Shown piece by piece: positions 42,742-57,250 of a DNA stretch of 64,000 nucleotides; position 1 is the first letter of the stretch; every line of letters starts with the position of its first letter. The stretch covers positions 1-64,000 of the forward strand of contig NZ_JAAEDM010000003.1 in assembly GCF_018129065.1 (NCBI RefSeq), in the 5' to 3' direction. The DNA is from Neoroseomonas soli. Its GTDB lineage: Bacteria > Pseudomonadota > Alphaproteobacteria > Acetobacterales > Acetobacteraceae. The position numbers and the translations under genes are program-made. The notes beneath the pieces were generated by a model that saw only the letters and a program-made list of their open reading frames with translations, was not told the origin of the DNA and did no database searches.

Positions 42742-42759
42742 TGGCCGCGCATGCAGGAC

Positions 42760-42893
42760 GGTCGGGGGGAGGGAACTCCCCCCGATCCCCCCTCCTTCTC
42801 TGGATACCTGGCACTGACCGCGGCCGCCGGTGCCAAGTGACCAAGGAAGGGAGGGGGTTCGGGGGAGGTTCCCCTCCCCCGGCCTTGTCGCCG
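42760..42893. repeat. Inverted-repeat element (family 3) abutting the next start codon
   Basis: Two arms of about 56 bp face each other. The left arm is GGTCGGGGGGAGGGAACTCC then CCCCGATCCCCCCTCC. The right arm, read in reverse complement, is GGCCGGGGGAGGGGAACCTC then CCCCGAACCCCCTCCC. Each arm holds a GGGGGAGG/CCTCCCCC-type hairpin, and the outer arms also pair with each other (CTGGCAC with GTGCCAAG). A second copy lies at 55066-55200. The conserved block extends to CCGCCATGA, which includes the ATG of the following gene. Confidence 0.75.
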
Positions 42894-42895
42894 CC

Positions 42896-49970: not shown

Positions 49971-51986
49971 ATGCTGACGGTCCTCGTCCTGCTGGTGGGA
50001 GCCCTGGCTGCGCTCGGCGGCGCCGCGATGCCGCTCGCGCGGAGTGCGGCGGGGGCAAGGCTCGTCCATGCCGGCTGCGTCGCGGCGGGGGTGGTGCTGG
50101 CGGCGGGCGGGCTGGCGGGGCTGCTCGGCGGGCCGGCGGCGCTCGAACTGCCCTTCGGCCCGCCCTGGGGGCCGGCGCGGCTCGCGCTCGATGCGCTGTC
50201 GTCGTGGTTCCTGCTGCCGCTCGGGATCGCGGTCGCCTGCGCCTCTCTCTTCGCGCTGGGGGGCGTGCATGGGGCGGTGCCGGCGCGGGAACTCGTGCCC
50301 TGGCCGCTCTTCGTCGCGGGCATGGCGCTGACGCTGCTCGCCGCCGACGGCTTCACCCTGCTGCTGGGGTTCGAGGCGATGTCCCTCGCCTCCTGGGTGT
50401 TGGTCGCGCATGACCACGCGCAGGCGGAGAACCGGCGGGCGGCGCGGATCTACCTGGTCTTCGCGGGCTTCGGTGGGCTGGCGCTGATCCTGGCCTGTGG
50501 GCTCATGGCGGGCGGGGCGGGGGATGTCGCCTTCGCGGCCTTCCGCGACGCGCCGCCGGAAGGCTGGCGCGCGGCGGCGGTGCTGGCGCTGGTGCTGGCG
50601 GGGGCTGGGTCCAAGGCGGGGCTGGCGCCGCTGCATGTGTGGCTGCCGCTCGCGCATCCGGCCGCGCCGAGCCATGTCTCGGCGGTGATGTCGGGGGCGA
50701 TGACCAAGGTGGCGCTCTATGTCCTGGCGCGCTTCGTCTTCGACCTGATGGGGCCGGCGCAGCCCTTCTGGCTGGGGGCGCCGCTGATCGCGCTGGGGGC
50801 CGCCTCCGCCGTGATCGGGGCGCTGCGGGCGAATCTGGAGGAAGACACCAAGACCCTGCTGGCCTGCTCGACCATCGAGAATGTCGGGCTGATCGCCATC
50901 GGGCTGGGGCTGGCGCTGGCCTTCCGCGGGGCGGACCTGCCGGCGCTGGCCGCGCTCGCCGCCGGGGCGGCGCTGCTGCACGTGCTGAACCATGCGGTGT
51001 TCAAGACGCTGCTGTTCCTGGCGGCGGGCGAGGTGCTGCACGGCGCGCTCTCCCGCCGGATCGACCGGCTGGGCGGGCTGATCCATCGCATGCCCTGGAC
51101 CGCCTGGGCGGCGCTGGCGGGGGTGGCGGCGGCGGCCGCGCTGCCGCCGCTTTCGGGGTTCGCCTCGGAATGGCTGCTGCTGCAGGCGCTGCTCTCGGCC
51201 TGGAGGGTGGGGGACCTCGCCTTCCAGATGGGGGCCGCGGCGGCGACGGCGCTTGCGGCGCTCGCGACGGCCCTGGCGGCGGCGGCGATGGTGCGGTTCT
51301 GGGGGCTGGTGTTCCTCGGCCGTCCGCGCACGCCGCGCGCGGCGGGGGCGGAGGAATCGGGCGGCGCGGTGCGGATCGCGCTGGTGGTCCCGGCCGTGCT
51401 GACCGTGCTGCTGGGGCTGGTGCCGGGGCTGATGCTGGACCTCGCGGAGCCCGCGCTGCGGCTGATGGCGGGGGCCGCCGCGCCGCGAGCGGACCTGCTG
51501 GCCGTCGGCGCGGCCGAGGGCGGGGCGCGCTACTGGCCGATCCTGGTCGCCGCGCTGGTCGCGGCGGCGATCGGGCTCGTGGTCTGGCTGGTCCGGCGCC
51601 GGGCGCCGGCGGGCGTGGCGCGCGGCCCGGCCTGGGATTGCGGCTTCATGGCCCCGCCGCACCACCTGCCCTTCGGCGACCCGGCGACCCAACCCAGCGC
51701 CGCGGGCTTCGGCCAGCCGCTGCGGCGGATGCTGGGCGAGAGCCTGCTCGCGGCGCGGGAGGGAGTGGCGATGCCCCCGCCGGGCGACACCCGGCCGGCA
51801 GTGCTGGAATCGGGCTTCCACGACCCGGCGCTCGCCGCGCTGGAAGGACCCCTGCCCCGCTGGCGGGAGGCCTTGGCGACGCAGGCGGAGAAGCTGCGCG
51901 ACCTGTCGATCCGGCAATGCCTCGGGCTGACCTTCGGGGCGGTGGTGCTGATGCTGGCGCTGCTCGCCTGGCTGGAGGGGCGCTGA
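49971..51986 (+). CDS. hyfB: Hydrogenase-4 component B-like proton-conducting subunit
   Basis: The 671-residue protein starts at ATG 49971; an in-frame ATG at 49908 is less likely because it precedes the first helix by a polar stretch. About sixteen hydrophobic segments include the NuoL/MrpA-type core AGSKAGLAPLHVWLPLAHPAAPSHVSAVMSG (near 210-240) with its conserved Lys and His, and HVLNHAVFKTLLFLAAGEV. A C-terminal helix anchor is present. It is an antiporter-like pump subunit. First in a six-gene unit with hyfC, E, F, G and I. Confidence 0.9.
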   Translation: MLTVLVLLVGALAALGGAAMPLARSAAGARLVHAGCVAAGVVLAAGGLAGLLGGPAALELPFGPPWGPARLALDALSSWFLLPLGIAVACASLFALGGVHGAVPARELVPWPLFVAGMALTLLAADGFTLLLGFEAMSLASWVLVAHDHAQAENRRAARIYLVFAGFGGLALILACGLMAGGAGDVAFAAFRDAPPEGWRAAAVLALVLAGAGSKAGLAPLHVWLPLAHPAAPSHVSAVMSGAMTKVALYVLARFVFDLMGPAQPFWLGAPLIALGAASAVIGALRANLEEDTKTLLACSTIENVGLIAIGLGLALAFRGADLPALAALAAGAALLHVLNHAVFKTLLFLAAGEVLHGALSRRIDRLGGLIHRMPWTAWAALAGVAAAAALPPLSGFASEWLLLQALLSAWRVGDLAFQMGAAAATALAALATALAAAAMVRFWGLVFLGRPRTPRAAGAEESGGAVRIALVVPAVLTVLLGLVPGLMLDLAEPALRLMAGAAAPRADLLAVGAAEGGARYWPILVAALVAAAIGLVVWLVRRRAPAGVARGPAWDCGFMAPPHHLPFGDPATQPSAAGFGQPLRRMLGESLLAAREGVAMPPPGDTRPAVLESGFHDPALAALEGPLPRWREALATQAEKLRDLSIRQCLGLTFGAVVLMLALLAWLEGR

Positions 51987-51987
51987 G

Positions 51988-52947
51988 ATGGCCGCCATCT
52001 GGTCCGTGCTCGCGCAACTGCTGCACATCGCGCTGATCCTTGCCGCGGCGCCGCTGCTGACCGGCGTGGTGCGCTGGCTGAAGGCGCGGATGATGGGACG
52101 GCGCGGGCCGCATCCGTTGCAGCCGGTGCGCGACCTGACGAAGCTGCTGCGCAAGCGGCCGGTGCTGGCGGAGAACGCCTCCGCAATCTCGCGCGCCGCG
52201 CCGTATGTCGCGGTGGGCGCGGCGATGGCGGCGGCGGCGCTGGTGCCATCCTTCGCGCGGGGCATGGTTTTCGCGCCGCTGGCGGATCTGATCCTGGTCG
52301 CGGGGCTGCTCGCCGTCGGGCGGGTGGCGATGGCGCTGGCGGGGATGGATGTGGGCACGCAATTCGGCGGGCTCGGCGCGGCGCGGGAGATGTCCTTCGC
52401 CGCAATCGCCGAACCGGCGCTGGTGATCGCGGCGCTGACGCTCGCGATCCTGGCGGGGACGACGAACCTCGATGCGATTGCGGGGGCGTTCCGGGAGGGC
52501 GGGCTGGGGCTGCGGGTCTCGCTCGGCCTCGCGCTGGTGGCGCTGCTGGCGGTGGCGGTCGCGGAGAATGCCCGCATCCCGGTGGACAATCCGGCGACGC
52601 ACCTGGAACTGACCATGGTGCATGAGGCGATGATCCTGGAAGCCTCGGGCCGCCACCTCGCGCTGTGGGATTATGCGGCGATGCTGCGGCTGACCCTGTG
52701 GCTCGCGCTGCTGGCGGCGGTCTTCCTGCCGTTCGGCCAGGCGCCGTCCGGCTCGGCGCCGCATGTCTGGGTGGTGGGGCTGCTCGCCTGGGTGGTGAAG
52801 ATGGGCGGGCTGGCGCTGGCGCTGGCCGGTTTCGAGAGCGCCATCGCCAAGATGCGCGTCTTCCGCGTGCCGGAATTCCTCGGCGCGGCGCTGCTGCTGG
52901 GGTTGCTTGGCGCGGTCTATCTGTTCGTCTCGACGGGGCTGTCGTGA
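51988..52947 (+). CDS. hyfC: Hydrogenase-4 component C-like membrane subunit (NuoH homologue)
   Basis: The 319-residue protein has about eight helices and lies one base after hyfB. NuoH/HycD features include MMGRRGPHPLQPVRDLTKLL (35-54), with its conserved cytosolic charges. Later comes AVAENARIPVDNPATHLELTMVHEAMILE, the strongly conserved acidic loop near the quinone or redox-module interface. It links the soluble arm to the pumping subunits. The stop overlaps the hyfE GTG. Confidence 0.92.
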   Translation: MAAIWSVLAQLLHIALILAAAPLLTGVVRWLKARMMGRRGPHPLQPVRDLTKLLRKRPVLAENASAISRAAPYVAVGAAMAAAALVPSFARGMVFAPLADLILVAGLLAVGRVAMALAGMDVGTQFGGLGAAREMSFAAIAEPALVIAALTLAILAGTTNLDAIAGAFREGGLGLRVSLGLALVALLAVAVAENARIPVDNPATHLELTMVHEAMILEASGRHLALWDYAAMLRLTLWLALLAAVFLPFGQAPSGSAPHVWVVGLLAWVVKMGGLALALAGFESAIAKMRVFRVPEFLGAALLLGLLGAVYLFVSTGLS

Positions 52948-53612
52948 GTTTCGGGCATCTTCCCTACGACGTGGCGCATCTGCTCGGCGGCGGGGTGCTG
53001 CTGCTGTCCTTCGTGCTGCTCTACCAGCGGCGCATCGGGGCGGTGATCAACGCCTTCGCGATGCAGGGCACGCTGCTGGCGCTGGCCGCGGCGTGGCAAG
53101 GGTATGTGCAGGGGGCGCCGGGGCTCTACCTGACCGCGGTGCTGGCGCTCGCGGCCAAGGGGGTGCTCATACCGCTCGCGCTGCATGCGATCGTCCGGCG
53201 GCTCGACCTGCATCGCACGGTGGAAACGGCGCTCGGCATCGGGCCGTCGCTGGTGGCCGGCGTCGGGCTGGTGGGGCTGGCGATCCTGGTGGTGCTGCCG
53301 GCGACCGAGGGCGCGCGGGCGCTGGCGCGCGAGGACCTGGCGCTGGCGCTTTCCGTCGTGCTGCTGGGCATGCTGATGATGATCTCGCGGCGCAACGCGA
53401 TCAGCCAGGTGATCGGGCTGCTGAGCCTGGAGAACGGGCTGATCCTCGCCGCCATCGGCGTGGCGGGGATGCCGCTGGTGGTGGAACTCTCGACCGCCGC
53501 GCTGGTGCTGATGGTCGCGGTGGTCGCCGCCGTCTTCGCCTTCCAGATCCGCGAGCGGTTCGACACGCTCGACACGCATCACCTCGAAGAACATCGCGGG
53601 GAGCGGCGCTGA
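52944..53612 (+). CDS. hyfE: Hydrogenase-4 component E-like membrane subunit (NuoK-like)
   Basis: The start is GTG 52944, overlapping the hyfC stop (222 residues). It has about seven hydrophobic helices. The NuoK-like part lies in the second half: MLMMISRRNAISQVIGLLSLENGLILAA (near 137-164), with a conserved membrane glutamate. The fused extra helices at the front are typical for HyfE. It should form part of the proton channel between the NuoH- and NuoN-like subunits. Confidence 0.9.
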   Translation: MSFGHLPYDVAHLLGGGVLLLSFVLLYQRRIGAVINAFAMQGTLLALAAAWQGYVQGAPGLYLTAVLALAAKGVLIPLALHAIVRRLDLHRTVETALGIGPSLVAGVGLVGLAILVVLPATEGARALAREDLALALSVVLLGMLMMISRRNAISQVIGLLSLENGLILAAIGVAGMPLVVELSTAALVLMVAVVAAVFAFQIRERFDTLDTHHLEEHRGERR

Positions 53613-55048
53613 TGCCCCTGCAATGGGTCATCGTCTTCTTCGCCTGGGGCGGCGCCGTGGTGCTGGCGGCGATCCCCAACTTGCGGCAGGCGACGCTGGC
53701 GAACATCGCGGTCAGTGCGGGGTCCTTCCTGCTGGCGCTGATGCTCGCCGCGCAGCCTTTCGCGGAACATGGCTGGACGCGCACCGACGCGCTGAACCTG
53801 CCCTTCATCCTGCTGTCCGCCTTCGTCGGGCTGACCACCTCGGTCTTCTCGGCGGCGACGCTCGACCAGGAAGGCTTCGACCACTGGCGCATCCGCGCCT
53901 ACCACGCCGCCTACCAGGTGTTCATGGGGGCGCAGACGCTGGCGCTGCTCGCGGACAATCTCGGCGTGATGTGGGTGGCGGTGGAGATCGCGACGCTCGC
54001 CACCGTCTCCATGGTCGCGGTCCACCGCACGCCGGCGGCCTTCGAGGCGGCGTGGAAGTTCTTCATCCTCTGCGGCGTCGGCATCGCGCTGGCCTTCTTC
54101 GGCACCGTCGTCCTCTACCTCGCGGCGCAGCCGCTGCTGAACGAGGAGACGGGCCTGTCCTGGGCCGCGCTGATGGGCGTGGCGGCGCAATGCGATCCGG
54201 GCACGCTGAACCTCGCCTTCGCCTTCCTGCTGCTGGGCTACGGCACCAAGGCAGGACTCGTGCCGCTGCATTCCTGGCTGCCGGATGCCCATGCGGAAGG
54301 GCCGGTGCCGATCTCGGCCGTGCTCTCGGGGCTGCTGCTGAATGCGGCGATGCTCGCGGTGCTGCGGGCGAAGTCCATCGTCGGCGCGCATCCGGAGGCG
54401 ATCGCGCCGGGGCCGTTCCTGCTCGCGCTCGGCCTTGCGTCCGTGCTGCTGGCGTCGGTGTCGCTCTGGCGGCGGCGGGACGCGCGGCGCTTCTTCGGGT
54501 GGTCGAGCATCGAGCACATGGGGATCGCGGCCTTCGCCTTCGGGCTCGGCGGCGCGGCGGCGAACCTCGCGGGGCTGCTGCACCTGCTCGGGCATTCGCT
54601 GGTGAAGAGCGCCGTGTTCTTCGGCGTCGGCCGCGCGGCGCAGGCCAAGGGCAGCCAGAAGATCGCCGATATCGGCGGGCTGGTGGCGACGCACCCGGCG
54701 CTCGGCTGGGGGCTGGCGCTGTCCATCGCGGCGATCGCGGGGATGCCGCCCTTCCTGCTCTTCGCCTCCGAGTTCCGGCTCTTGGCCACGGCGGCGGGAG
54801 AGGCACCCTGGCTCGCCCTGGCATTGGCGCTCGGGATGGTCACGGCGCTCGCGGCTCTCATCACGGTGCTGCAGGCGCTCTGCTTCGGGGTGCCGACACC
54901 GGATGCGGCGACGGCGCCGAACGGCTGGCGGGAAAACGCGGCGGCAGCGCCGCTCTGGCTGCACCTGGCGGTGGCCATGGGGCTGGGGCTCGCCATGCCG
55001 GGCGTCTTGGCGGCGATGCTCGCGGAAGCGGCGAGGGTGATCGGATGA
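53612..55048 (+). CDS. hyfF: Hydrogenase-4 component F-like proton-conducting subunit
   Basis: The 478-residue protein overlaps hyfE by one base (TGATG). It has about fourteen helices and the antiporter core GYGTKAGLVPLHSWLPDAHAEGPVPISAVLSGLLLN (near 210-245) with key Lys and His, plus SSIEHMGIAAFAFG and HLLGHSLVKSAVFFGVG. It is homologous to NuoN/NuoM. HyfD, the second antiporter subunit of E. coli hydrogenase 4, is absent. A family-3 repeat separates it from hyfG. Confidence 0.91.
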   Translation: MPLQWVIVFFAWGGAVVLAAIPNLRQATLANIAVSAGSFLLALMLAAQPFAEHGWTRTDALNLPFILLSAFVGLTTSVFSAATLDQEGFDHWRIRAYHAAYQVFMGAQTLALLADNLGVMWVAVEIATLATVSMVAVHRTPAAFEAAWKFFILCGVGIALAFFGTVVLYLAAQPLLNEETGLSWAALMGVAAQCDPGTLNLAFAFLLLGYGTKAGLVPLHSWLPDAHAEGPVPISAVLSGLLLNAAMLAVLRAKSIVGAHPEAIAPGPFLLALGLASVLLASVSLWRRRDARRFFGWSSIEHMGIAAFAFGLGGAAANLAGLLHLLGHSLVKSAVFFGVGRAAQAKGSQKIADIGGLVATHPALGWGLALSIAAIAGMPPFLLFASEFRLLATAAGEAPWLALALALGMVTALAALITVLQALCFGVPTPDAATAPNGWRENAAAAPLWLHLAVAMGLGLAMPGVLAAMLAEAARVIG

Positions 55049-55065
55049 GGCGGGATGCGAAAGGA

Positions 55066-55200
55066 AGGTCGGGGGAGGAGAACCTCCCCCGAGCCCCCTC
55101 CCTTCTTTGGATTCTTGGCGCTGGCCTCGGCAGTCAGTCTCCAAATGACAAGGAAGGTTGGGGGGTTCGGGGGGGAGTTCCCTTCCCCCCGACCTTTTCA
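55066..55200. repeat. Inverted-repeat element (family 3) between hyfF and hyfG
   Basis: This second copy of the family is equivalent to 42760-42893. The left arm is GGTCGGGGGAGGAGAACCTC then CCCCGAGCCCCCTCCC. The right arm in reverse complement is GGTCGGGGGGAAGGGAACTC then CCCCCCGAACCCCCC. It ends six bases before the hyfG ATG with CCTTTTCACCGCCATGA, matching CCTTGTCGCCGCCATGA of the first copy. It interrupts an otherwise overlapping operon. Confidence 0.75.
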
Positions 55201-55205
55201 CCGCC

Positions 55206-56717
55206 ATGACCGCCGCCGCCCTCATCCGCACCGGCGCCCCCCAGGGCGCGCACCCCTTCGAGCGCTTCCTGCTGGCCGCCGGAACCTGGGCCGGCCTGCC
55301 GGCGGCGCTGACCGCCGATCCTTCCCTCGCGTTCCTCGGCATGTGGGCCGAACCTGGCATGGTCCATGCCGCCTTCCTCGAGGAAGGCGCGAACGCCGTG
55401 CTGCTCGCCTCCGCCCCCGCGGAGTCCGGCCGCTACGCCGCGCTCTCCCCCGCCCGCCCCGGCGCCATCCGCTTCGAGCGCATGATCCGCGATCTCTGGG
55501 CGCTGACCGCCGAGGGCGCGGTGGACCTACGCCCCTGGCTCGATCATGGCCGCTGGGGCCTGGAAGGCCCGCTGTCCGGCCGCCCGGCTGCCATCCTGGG
55601 CGGGGAGCCGCCGCAGCCCGAATTCCTCCCCGCCGAGGGCGAGGGCATCCACCAGATCCCGGTCGGCCCGATCCATGCCGGAGTCATCGAGCCAGGCCAT
55701 TTCCGCTTCCACGTCCAGGGCGAGTTGGTGGTCCGGCTGGAGCAAAGGTTCGGCTACACGCACAAGGGCACGCTGTCGCTGATGCTCGGCAAGCCGGCGC
55801 GCGCGGCGGCGGCCTTCGCGGCGCGGCTGTCCGGCGATTCGACGGTGGCGCATGGCTGGGCCTTCGCCGCGGCGGCGGAAGCGGCGCTCGGCGTGGCGGT
55901 GCCGCCGCGCGCGGTGGCCCTGCGCGCGGTGATGGGCGAGCTGGAGCGCATCCACAACCACCTCAACGACTGGGGCTTCGTCTGCAACGACGCCGCCTTC
56001 GCCTATCCGCACGCGCGCTGCGGCTGGCTGCGGGAAGGCGTGCTGCGCGCCTGCGCGGCCGCCTTCGGCCACCGGCTGATGATGGACCGCGTGCTGCCCG
56101 GTGGGATCGCGCCCGACATCGCGCCGGGCGGGGCTGAGGCGATCCTCGCCGCGCTGGAAGCGGTGGAGCGTGAAACCCCCGCGCTGATGCGCATCTACGA
56201 GAGCCATGCCAGCCTGCAGGACCGCGTGGTGGGCACGGGCTTCCTCGACCCCGTGCTGGCGGCGCGCTTCGCCGCCGGCGGCTTCGTCGGGCGCGGTTCC
56301 GCCCGCCGCTTCGATGCGCGGCGCACGCCCGGCTACGCGCCCTATGACGCCATGGTGCCGGCGCTCGCGGTCGAAGCGGGTGGCGACGTCGACGCACGGG
56401 TGCGGGTGCGGGTGGCCGAGCTCGGCACTTCCATCTCCCTGGTGCGGCGCCTGCTGATGACGCTGCCGGAGGGCGAGACGCTGGTGCCGCTGCCCGCGCA
56501 GGCCGGCGAAGGCAGCGCGCTGATCGAAGGCTTCCGCGGGGAGTGCCTGGCCTGGCTGCGGCTCGACGAGGGCGGGCTGATCCGCGCCGTCTTCCTGCGC
56601 GACCCGTCCTGGCTGCAATGGCCGCTGCTCGAAGCCGCGATCGAGGGCAACATCGTCGCCGACTTCCCGATCTGCAACAAATCCTTCAACTGCTCCTATT
56701 CGGGGGTGGACCTCTGA
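55206..56717 (+). CDS. hyfG: Hydrogenase-4 large-subunit-like protein lacking N-terminal Ni ligands (Ehr type)
   Basis: The 503-residue protein joins a NuoC-like N-terminal part to a NuoD/HycE-like core (PVGPIHAGVIEPGHFRFHVQGE, 152-173). Where [NiFe] hydrogenases carry the first CxxC motif, it reads LSGDSTVAHGWAF (208-220), with no cysteine. At the C-terminus Cys490 and Cys496 remain (FPICNKSFNCSYSG), spaced unlike the CxxC of hydrogenases. A Ni-Fe site therefore cannot form in the standard way. This fits the energy-converting hydrogenase-related (Ehr) group. The redox partner is unknown. Confidence 0.88.
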   Translation: MTAAALIRTGAPQGAHPFERFLLAAGTWAGLPAALTADPSLAFLGMWAEPGMVHAAFLEEGANAVLLASAPAESGRYAALSPARPGAIRFERMIRDLWALTAEGAVDLRPWLDHGRWGLEGPLSGRPAAILGGEPPQPEFLPAEGEGIHQIPVGPIHAGVIEPGHFRFHVQGELVVRLEQRFGYTHKGTLSLMLGKPARAAAAFAARLSGDSTVAHGWAFAAAAEAALGVAVPPRAVALRAVMGELERIHNHLNDWGFVCNDAAFAYPHARCGWLREGVLRACAAAFGHRLMMDRVLPGGIAPDIAPGGAEAILAALEAVERETPALMRIYESHASLQDRVVGTGFLDPVLAARFAAGGFVGRGSARRFDARRTPGYAPYDAMVPALAVEAGGDVDARVRVRVAELGTSISLVRRLLMTLPEGETLVPLPAQAGEGSALIEGFRGECLAWLRLDEGGLIRAVFLRDPSWLQWPLLEAAIEGNIVADFPICNKSFNCSYSGVDL

Positions 56718-57250
56718 TGCTGTGGCCCCGCCTCGCCCGCGCGCTGCTCGGCAAGCCGCTGACGGACCCGGCGCCGCCGGTGCCGCAGGAGACGGTGGCC
56801 GCCCTGGGCGAGCGCCTGGCGGCGGCCGCGCGCACGCGGCTCGGCCGGAGCCTGTCGATCCGCGAGGTGGATTCCGGTTCCTGCAACGGCTGCGAACTGG
56901 AGGTGACCGCGCTGCAGAACGTCGCCTATGACCTCGAACGCTTCGGCCTGCGTTTCGTGGCCTCGCCGAAGCACGCCGACGTGCTGCTGGTGACCGGCCC
57001 CGCCTGCCGCAACATGACCGAGGCGATGCAGCGCGCGCTCGACTGCACGCCCGACCCGAAATGGGTGGTGGCGGTGGGCGACTGCGCGGTGGATGGCGGC
57101 GTCTTCAAGGGGTCCTACGCCGTGGAAGGCGGCGTCGGCGCGGTTCTGCCGGTCGATCTGCTGATCCCGGGCTGCCCCCCCTCCCCCGAACAGTTGCTGG
57201 AAGGGCTGCTGGCGCTGCTGGAGGCCGAGGCGGCGCCGGCCCCCAAATAA
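56717..57250 (+). CDS. hyfI: Hydrogenase-4 small-subunit-like protein (NuoB homologue)
   Basis: The 177-residue protein overlaps the hyfG stop by one base. All four [4Fe-4S] ligands are present: Cys56 and Cys59 (SGSCNGCELE), Cys123 (GDCAVDGG) and Cys153 (PGCPPSPEQLL). The proximal/N2-type cluster therefore should form even though the large subunit has no Ni site. No HyfH/NuoI or HyfA ferredoxin gene follows, so the operon codes only six subunits. Confidence 0.93.
   Translation: MLWPRLARALLGKPLTDPAPPVPQETVAALGERLAAAARTRLGRSLSIREVDSGSCNGCELEVTALQNVAYDLERFGLRFVASPKHADVLLVTGPACRNMTEAMQRALDCTPDPKWVVAVGDCAVDGGVFKGSYAVEGGVGAVLPVDLLIPGCPPSPEQLLEGLLALLEAEAAPAPK

What the first reader, a model, noticed from the sequence alone, without database searches (positions are those of the whole stretch)
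49971..57250. A hydrogenase-4-like operon whose large subunit cannot bind Ni-Fe normally (Ehr complex)
Seen: six genes, hyfB, C, E, F, G and I. HyfI keeps all four cluster cysteines. HyfG has no cysteine at the first ligand site (208-220), and its C-terminal pair is Cys490/Cys496, not CxxC. Known: Ehr complexes related to group 4 hydrogenases lack one or both ligand motifs, and their substrate is unsettled. Inference: this is an ion-pumping redox complex with an unknown electron donor or acceptor. A standard annotation would call it a hydrogenase, which is likely wrong.
Basis: partly seen in the sequence, partly recalled or inferred. Interest (0 to 1): 0.75.

Follow-up and report, generated by a model that had tools for sequence, protein, structure and literature searches.

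The report
Non-hydrogenase Ehr ion-pump operon
This six-gene operon looks like a hydrogenase but all four residues that would hold its nickel-iron centre are replaced, so it is most likely a member of the known but uncharacterised 'Ehr' family of electron-driven ion pumps related to respiratory complex I.

Summary
The operon hyfB-C-E-F-G-I (49971-57250) is real, in a probable Acetobacteraceae. Aligned to HycE, the four ligand cysteines are Ser209, Ser212, Ser497 and Gly500, and the gene ends where true enzymes have 32 more residues. The own genome lacks HypD. Among 299 Pseudomonadota genomes, 58 carry this type, 7 true CxxC enzymes, 2 a third type; HypD occurs in 21, 7 and 0. The emptied site is strictly conserved: Asp211 146/146; Lys492, Ser493, Gly500, Asp502 145/145. 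HyfI cluster cysteines are invariant in rows that have letters. No electron-input subunit or general partner gene was found nearby. Related operons fuse HyfI to a ferredoxin domain; 4 of the 5 fetched with an intact upstream region follow a fluoride riboswitch. Best reading: a ferredoxin-linked ion pump with a re-specified site, a new member of a known kind; donor, acceptor and pumping are untested.

The parts
49971..51986 (+). hyfB, antiporter-like membrane subunit (NuoL/Mrp-type), 671 aa
   Evidence: E135 130/130, K215 130/131, K294 128/132, H341 136/136, K345 135/136 of rows with letters
51988..52947 (+). hyfC, NuoH-like membrane subunit, 319 aa
   Evidence: D100, E134, E142, E193 in every row with letters, of 107
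52944..53612 (+). hyfE, HyfE-like membrane subunit, 222 aa, GTG start overlapping the hyfC stop
   Evidence: K72, E163, E181 in every row with letters, of 101
53612..55048 (+). hyfF, second antiporter-like subunit, 478 aa
   Evidence: NCBIfam 'hydrogenase 4 subunit F' 542 bits over cut-off 533; E126 135/136, K214 135/137
55049..55205 (+). intergenic palindromic repeat element between hyfF and hyfG
   Evidence: MFE -100.8 kcal/mol, z -6.6; 40 places in the own genome; by gap length absent from Roseomonas-type relatives
55206..56717 (+). hyfG, large subunit (NuoC-like plus NuoD/HycE-like), 503 aa
   Evidence: model pLDDT 90.7, best PDB match FHL subunit 7z0s_E, TM 0.90
55830..55841 (+). codons 209-212 SGDS at the first Ni-Fe ligand site (CGIC in HycE); Asp211 invariant
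56673..56714 (+). codons 490-503 CNKSFNCSYSGVDL at the second ligand site (HycE IIGSLDPCYSCTDR); the gene ends here, no tail
56717..57250 (+). hyfI, small subunit with one [4Fe-4S] site (C56, C59, C123, C153), 177 aa; start overlaps hyfG stop

Best explanation
A six-subunit Ehr (energy-converting hydrogenase-related) complex of the complex I superfamily. SHOWN by sequence: a hydrogenase-4-type membrane arm with two antiporter-like subunits, a NuoH-like and a HyfE-like subunit, with conserved charged residues; a small subunit with one [4Fe-4S] site; a large subunit with the HycE/NuoCD fold whose four Ni-Fe cysteines are Ser, Ser, Ser and Gly and whose vacated site carries its own strictly conserved residues (Asp211, Lys492, Asn495, with Ser493, Gly500, Asp502). 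INFERRED: a soluble two-cluster ferredoxin docks on HyfI in place of HyfA/HyfH and exchanges electrons with the single cluster; the redox change at the HyfG/HyfI/HyfC interface drives H+ or Na+ movement through HyfB and HyfF. NOT known: whether the acceptor is a quinone or a small polar substrate, and whether the complex runs forwards (making ion-motive force) or backwards (reducing ferredoxin). I expect it neither makes nor uses H2.
For: All four ligand positions replaced and no tail. HypD: none in own genome; 21 of 58 genomes with this type, 7 of 7 with true CxxC enzymes, 0 of 2 of a third type, 52 of 232 without a match. Site residues over 146 HyfG rows: D211 146/146; K492, S493, G500, D502 145/145; N495 144/145. 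HyfI cluster Cys 129/129, 129/129, 128/128, 127/127 of rows with letters; key pump residues 97-100%. No ferredoxin or maturation subunit gene beside the window-type operons in the stretches held, apart from weak 22-24 bit hits in L045 and L104 and HypC-like ORFs in L162 and L168, whereas all 7 true hydrogenase loci have HycB/HyfA, HycF/HyfH and HycI. HyfI fused to a ferredoxin domain in related operons. Best fold match is FHL HycE.
Against: No biochemical data. The ferredoxin fusion is in a sister group (26-30% identity to the window HyfG) and in one long-branched Variovorax operon (32%), not in the window type. The window type is not one clade in the tree: three changes of label are forced, with the Rhodococcus row on the other side of the midpoint and the third type nested inside. 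No named Ehr reference (Geobacter) was fetched, so clustering with it is untested. HypD is somewhat commoner with this type (21/58) than without a match (52/232), nominal p 0.04, kinship not corrected. A ligand column holds Cys in a few relatives: 209 in L050 and L126, 212 in L043 and L086. The repeat between hyfF and hyfG could impair expression here.
Confidence: 0.72

Rival explanations
1. A ferredoxin:quinone oxidoreductase: a minimal complex I whose acceptor is the membrane quinone at the HyfG/HyfI/HyfC interface (a sub-case of the best explanation).
For: HyfG keeps the His of the NuoD quinone site (H186, 146/146; role recalled); HyfG scores best against NuoD models in NCBIfam, though under their cut-offs; HyfC keeps several NuoH-type charged residues.
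Against: That His is also in HycE and HyfG of E. coli, so it is not diagnostic. The column of the quinone-binding Tyr (role recalled) is Tyr in NuoCD but Gly210 here. HyfI has hydrogenase-type CxxC, not the tandem Cys pair of NuoB.
Confidence: 0.3
2. A formate dehydrogenase-coupled complex (FDH-Ehr, or FHL-like without hydrogenase).
For: Ehr subunits of Geobacter are more abundant on formate (PMC7894505, passage read) and an FDH-Ehr complex was proposed for Riflemargulisbacteria (PMC6349859, passages read). The own genome has an FDH alpha gene over cut-off, on another contig.
Against: 18 of 58 genomes of this type have an FDH alpha over the TIGR01591 cut-off (counted by eye; other FDH types may fall under it). 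No FDH partner among the ten neighbour clusters annotated.
Confidence: 0.1
3. An ordinary [NiFe] group 4 hydrogenase with unusual ligands.
For: Membrane subunits are hydrogenase-4-like; borderline PF00374 match (25.4 under and 27.2 over the 25.8 cut-off); HypD in 21 of 58 carriers.
Against: All four ligand positions lost, no cleaved tail, no HycI beside it, no HypD in the own genome.
Confidence: 0.02
4. Redox-silent: the soluble arm is a scaffold or sensor and the complex acts as an Mrp-like antiporter.
For: Loss of the Ni-Fe site and of the electron-input subunits.
Against: The four cluster cysteines of HyfI are invariant in rows with letters, and related operons added a ferredoxin domain by fusion.
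Confidence: 0.1
5. Sulfane/polysulfide reductase or ferredoxin:NADP-type activity, as in archaeal Mbs/Mbx.
For: Mbx of Pyrococcus furiosus is described as a ferredoxin:NADP+ oxidoreductase in PMC6349859 (passage read). The 6u8y_L chain matches the HyfG profile at 1.8e-39; that 6u8y is Mbs is recalled.
Against: 6u8y_L ranks below FHL, Mbh and most complex I chains. No annotated sulfur or NADP-oxidoreductase partner beside the operons of L036, L037 and L038; not examined elsewhere.
Confidence: 0.06

Closest known systems
Ehr complexes (Methylacidiphilum ehrABCDLS; Sulfobacillus; Nitrospira; Geobacter GSU0739-45)
   Same: Antiporter-like subunits, HyfE-like subunit, large subunit without Ni-Fe motifs, small subunit (PMC6688271, PMC4378227, PMC10284858, PMC7894505; passages read).
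   Different: Geobacter's cluster spans seven locus numbers, one more than here. The vacated-site motif was not compared with those sequences (not fetched).
E. coli hydrogenase-4 (HyfA-J) and hydrogenase-3/FHL (HycB-I)
   Same: HyfB, C, E, F, G, I homologues; fold of HycE (TM 0.90).
   Different: No HyfA, D, H or J beside it, no protease, no CxxC motifs, no C-terminal tail, no HypD in the genome (HyfJ sought only as HycH).
Respiratory complex I (NuoBCDHLMNK)
   Same: Homologous core; NuoC-NuoD fusion as in E. coli NuoCD (7p7l_C, TM 0.90).
   Different: No NuoE, F or I beside it (NuoG not sought), no quinone Tyr, cluster Cys arranged as in hydrogenases.
Ferredoxin-fused, fluoride-riboswitch Ehr (L202, L203, L205, L206)
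   Same: Same six subunits; Ni-Fe ligands also lost.
   Different: HyfI carries an N-terminal Fer4 domain; HyfG sites RVSGxx[STG] and NEASFGL; RF01734 upstream.

Membership tests
Ehr complex | Group 4-type large subunit lacking the Ni-Fe ligand motifs | tested here: met
Ehr complex | Gene set with antiporter-like, NuoH-like and HyfE-like membrane subunits plus large and small subunits | tested here: met
Ehr complex | Clusters with named Ehr large subunits (e.g. Geobacter EhrL) in a tree | not tested
   no named Ehr sequence was fetched; the tree holds none
Ehr complex | Redox-driven ion translocation | not testable with these tools
   needs purified complex or vesicles; key pump residues are kept
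Group 4 [NiFe] hydrogenase | Two CxxC ligand motifs in the large subunit | tested here: not met
   CGIC to SGDS; CxxC to S497..G500
Group 4 [NiFe] hydrogenase | C-terminal tail removed by a protease after cofactor insertion (role recalled) | tested here: not met
   tail 0 against 32 residues in true enzymes; no HycI-like ORF in window 40001-64000
Group 4 [NiFe] hydrogenase | Hyp maturation genes in the genome | tested here: not met
   HypD none in own genome, 99.34% complete; other hyp genes not searched genome-wide
Group 4 [NiFe] hydrogenase | Ferredoxin-like subunits (HyfA/HycB, HyfH/HycF) | tested here: not met
   none in window 40001-64000
Complex I | NuoB-type tandem Cys and NuoD quinone Tyr (role recalled) | tested here: not met

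The most novel reading that the evidence does not exclude
The emptied Ni-Fe pocket is a third kind of working site in the complex I superfamily, beside the Ni-Fe and quinone sites: a metal-free pocket built around invariant Asp211, Lys492 and (near-invariant) Asn495, with Ser493 and Asp502, coupled to one [4Fe-4S] cluster and fed by ferredoxin. Bacteria would use such complexes as emergency ion pumps, with one branch placed under fluoride control to restore the ion gradient that drives fluoride export.
Probability: 0.25. Interest if true: 0.75.

Novelty: new member of a known kind. Interest (0 to 1): 0.48.

Why it matters
Ehr complexes recur in nitrite oxidisers, Geobacter, rhizobia and many other bacteria, carry misleading annotations, and their function is called unknown or uninvestigated in papers read here in passages (PMC4378227, PMC10284858, PMC7894505). 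A precise signature at the vacated site gives point mutations to test and separates them from hydrogenases in genome surveys, and the ferredoxin fusion plus fluoride riboswitch in related operons name a donor and a condition in which to look.

Tried and rejected
Nitrogenase supply (pump run backwards to reduce ferredoxin): nifH over cut-off in 9 of 58 carriers against 25 of 232 genomes without a match, not significant. Formate dehydrogenase as obligatory partner: over cut-off in 18 of 58 (counted by eye). Fluoride control of the window type: no RF01734 in the window; 9 of 58 window-type genomes have one (stricter filters), on another contig than the operon, except G139, where it is about 1.6 Mb away. 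Conserved partner gene: neighbour clustering gave lineage-limited or scattered neighbours (DctM, spermidine-synthase-like, YjdM, HTH-cupin, Asp/Glu racemase, purD and others); ten of the 45 clusters listed were scanned with Pfam, three of them without a match; clusters inside the operon span were taken for shadow frames. Viral contigs: no relative. The mycobacterial locus Rv0082-Rv0087 (same gene set, recalled) was searched in papers (listing only) and not pursued. Paper searches on fluoride with hydrogenase or Ehr: nothing seen on Ehr; 'formate hydrogen lyase' under crcB RNA is in Weinberg 2010 (PMC2864571, passages) and repeated in PMC8004769 (passage).
Full report
WHAT IS THERE. Six co-directional genes fill 49971-57250: hyfB, hyfC, hyfE, hyfF, hyfG, hyfI, with start/stop overlaps at hyfC/hyfE, hyfE/hyfF and hyfG/hyfI. 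Pfam and NCBIfam place them as two antiporter-like subunits, a NuoH-like, a HyfE-like, a NuoCD/HycE-like and a NuoB-like protein. Only HyfF passes a hydrogenase-4 cut-off. HyfG passes none in NCBIfam; in Pfam it passes Complex1_49kDa and is borderline for NiFeSe_Hases (25.4 bits, 27.2, cut-off 25.8). The nearest named relatives of HyfG are from Roseomonas, Paracraurococcus and Siccirubricoccus (69-73% identity), so the organism is probably an Acetobacteraceae; its genome is held unnamed.

THE LIGAND SITES. HyfG aligns with E. coli HycE (7z0s_E, 7.2e-44; profile 1.7e-91). HycE R-V-C-G-I-C-G-F-A-H faces R-L-S-G-D-S-T-V-A-H; HycE G-S-L-D-P-C-Y-S-C-T-D faces K-S-F-N-C-S-Y-S-G-V-D. The four ligand cysteines are thus S209, S212, S497 and G500. 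The gene stops 0 residues after the position where HycE and HyfG of E. coli have 32 more; that tail is what the maturation protease removes (recalled).

THE SITE IS RE-SPECIFIED. The 146 rows show H186 and D211 146/146, K492, S493, G500 and D502 145/145, N491 and N495 144/145. S209 is Ser in 143, Cys in 2 (L050, L126) and Val in 1; position 212 is Ser in 119 and Cys in 2 (L043, L086); 497 and 500 are never Cys. Caveats: two rows (L036, L145) are the same Rhizobium plasmid, L099 is cut before the C-terminus, L189 is a ferredoxin-fused operon, and 80 rows are the best 80 of 583 related stretches, hence biased to close relatives. The set includes a Nitrospirae MAG (L184), Rhodococcus (L185), Burkholderia (L186) and gammaproteobacteria (L179, L187). 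H186, S493 and D502 are also present in the E. coli enzymes; D211, K492 and N495 are the new ones (Ile, Gly, Asp in HycE).

GENOME TESTS. Own genome: no HypD; PF00374 over cut-off only at hyfG, the other match being E 0.36 with a stop inside; a normal complex I NuoD on another contig. Of 299 Pseudomonadota genomes 67 have a HyfG match at 1e-30: by motif 58 of the window type (own included; in G144 only the first site is on the contig), 7 true CxxC enzymes and 2 of a third type, G039 and G295. HypD over cut-off: 21 of 58, 7 of 7, 0 of 2, and 52 of the 232 genomes without a match. Among the 43 window-type genomes at least 90% complete and at most 5% contaminated, 19 have HypD. So this type does not need HypD, although HypD is slightly commoner with it (nominal p 0.04, kinship not corrected). 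That the phylum is Pseudomonadota is inferred from the named relatives.

OPERON CONTENT. In one search the 7 true hydrogenase loci carry HycB or HyfA, HycF or HyfH, HycG or HyfI, and HycI (HycH in 6). The window-type loci carry none of the ferredoxin or maturation genes within the stretch held, apart from weak HycF/HyfH-like hits (22-24 bits) in L045 and L104. In one search, which covers 143 loci (window, two third-type loci and one duplicate included), 109 show all six genes; the other 34 were not examined one by one, but several are cut by contig ends or have two genes in one open frame. Extras there: HycF-like in L045 and L104, HypC-like in L162 and L168, HyfD-like in L183. Neighbour clustering found no general partner. 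Rhodococcus carries the same six with hyfI first.

PUMP AND CLUSTER. HyfI C56, C59, C123 and C153 are Cys in 129/129, 129/129, 128/128 and 127/127 rows with letters. One search printed only charged residues at 95% or more; among them are ones shared with E. coli Hyf and Nuo subunits: HyfB E135, K215, K294, H341, K345; HyfF E126, K214; HyfC E142 (one search gives counts). Frames over 1.8 times the expected length, and hits under 60 bits, were dropped before these counts. The HyfG model (33-row alignment) has mean pLDDT 90.7, under 50 at 155-160 and 500-503, and matches 7z0s_E first (TM 0.90), with complex I chains close behind (7p7l_C, TM 0.90).

WHERE ELECTRONS MAY ENTER. Their HyfG also lacks the ligands: L189 keeps an NKSF site, the others have RVSGxx[STG] and NEASFGL. 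In the tree four of these form one fully supported group and L189 is a lone long branch. The same tree does not make the window type one clade: three changes are forced, the Rhodococcus row lies on the other side of the midpoint root and the third type is nested inside on a very long branch. So the order of loss and gain of Ni-Fe sites is open, and the ferredoxin partner of the window type is an inference from related groups.

FLUORIDE. Of six fused operons fetched, L204 is cut off upstream; of the other five, four have RF01734 upstream on the same strand: L202 and L203 about 240 bases before the first gene, L206 about 410 bases before its first open frame, L205 ahead of a CrcB-like ORF that precedes the operon (CrcB by eye). 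L189 has none. Three further fused plasmid records were not fetched. L203 sits among crcB, a CLC-family channel, DUF190 and inorganic diphosphatase genes. The window has no RF01734, and no window-type genome shows one near the operon. Weinberg 2010 listed 'formate hydrogen lyase' genes under the crcB RNA (PMC2864571, passages). That such operons lack Ni-Fe sites I saw in no paper listed. A 2024 review says fluoride entry lowers the proton-motive force and cells respond with Na+/H+ antiporters (PMC11139923, passages), which fits an ion pump.

THE REPEAT. The 157-base hyfF-hyfG gap is one copy of a near-perfect palindrome (-100.8 kcal/mol, z -6.6); 69 match rows merge to 40 places in the own genome (131 candidates, 40 scored). 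From hyfF stop to hyfG end the window has 1666 bases, five relatives (L105, L106, L108, L109, L176) 1493-1508, so they lack it. It may weaken or tune hyfG-hyfI expression in this strain.

KNOWN OR NEW. Ehr complexes without Ni-Fe motifs are in print (PMC4378227, PMC6349859, PMC10284858 passages; also PMC6688271, PMC7894505 passages; Coppi 2005 and Marreiros 2013 seen only as references). The window operon is a new member. The positional signature of the vacated site was not stated in the passages read; whether Marreiros 2013 gives it could not be checked.

Noticed in passing
window 55049-55205 and 42755-42895: Copies of a ~130-nt near-perfect palindromic repeat (MFE -100.8 kcal/mol for the first) found at 40 places in the own genome; one sits inside the operon and, by gap length, is absent from close relatives.
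   Followed up: partly
L202, L203, L205, L206: Ferredoxin-fused Ehr operons lie behind fluoride riboswitches (RF01734), in L203 among fluoride-resistance genes.
   Followed up: partly
L189:9960-17358 and L188:4648-11832 (Variovorax sp. PBL-E5 plasmid 3): Two Ehr operons about 3.4 kb apart on one plasmid, one with a ferredoxin-fused HyfI and no fluoride riboswitch, one of the window type.
   Followed up: partly
L051, L052 (genomes G039, G295, same family as the window): A third, very divergent HyfG (RINA[VL]DS / SFGxLxTGVDL, no Cys ligands) with hardly recognisable membrane subunits; it branches next to the window type on a very long branch, which may be an artefact.
   Followed up: no
L082, L089, L097, L108, L118, L185, L186: A YjdM (PhnA-domain) gene lies near Ehr operons in seven loci from at least two phyla; spermidine-synthase-like genes do so in eleven loci and DctM (TRAP) genes in nine, the window included.
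   Followed up: no
G000:C93:12364-12433: The window's genome has one fluoride riboswitch, on a different contig from the Ehr operon.
   Followed up: no
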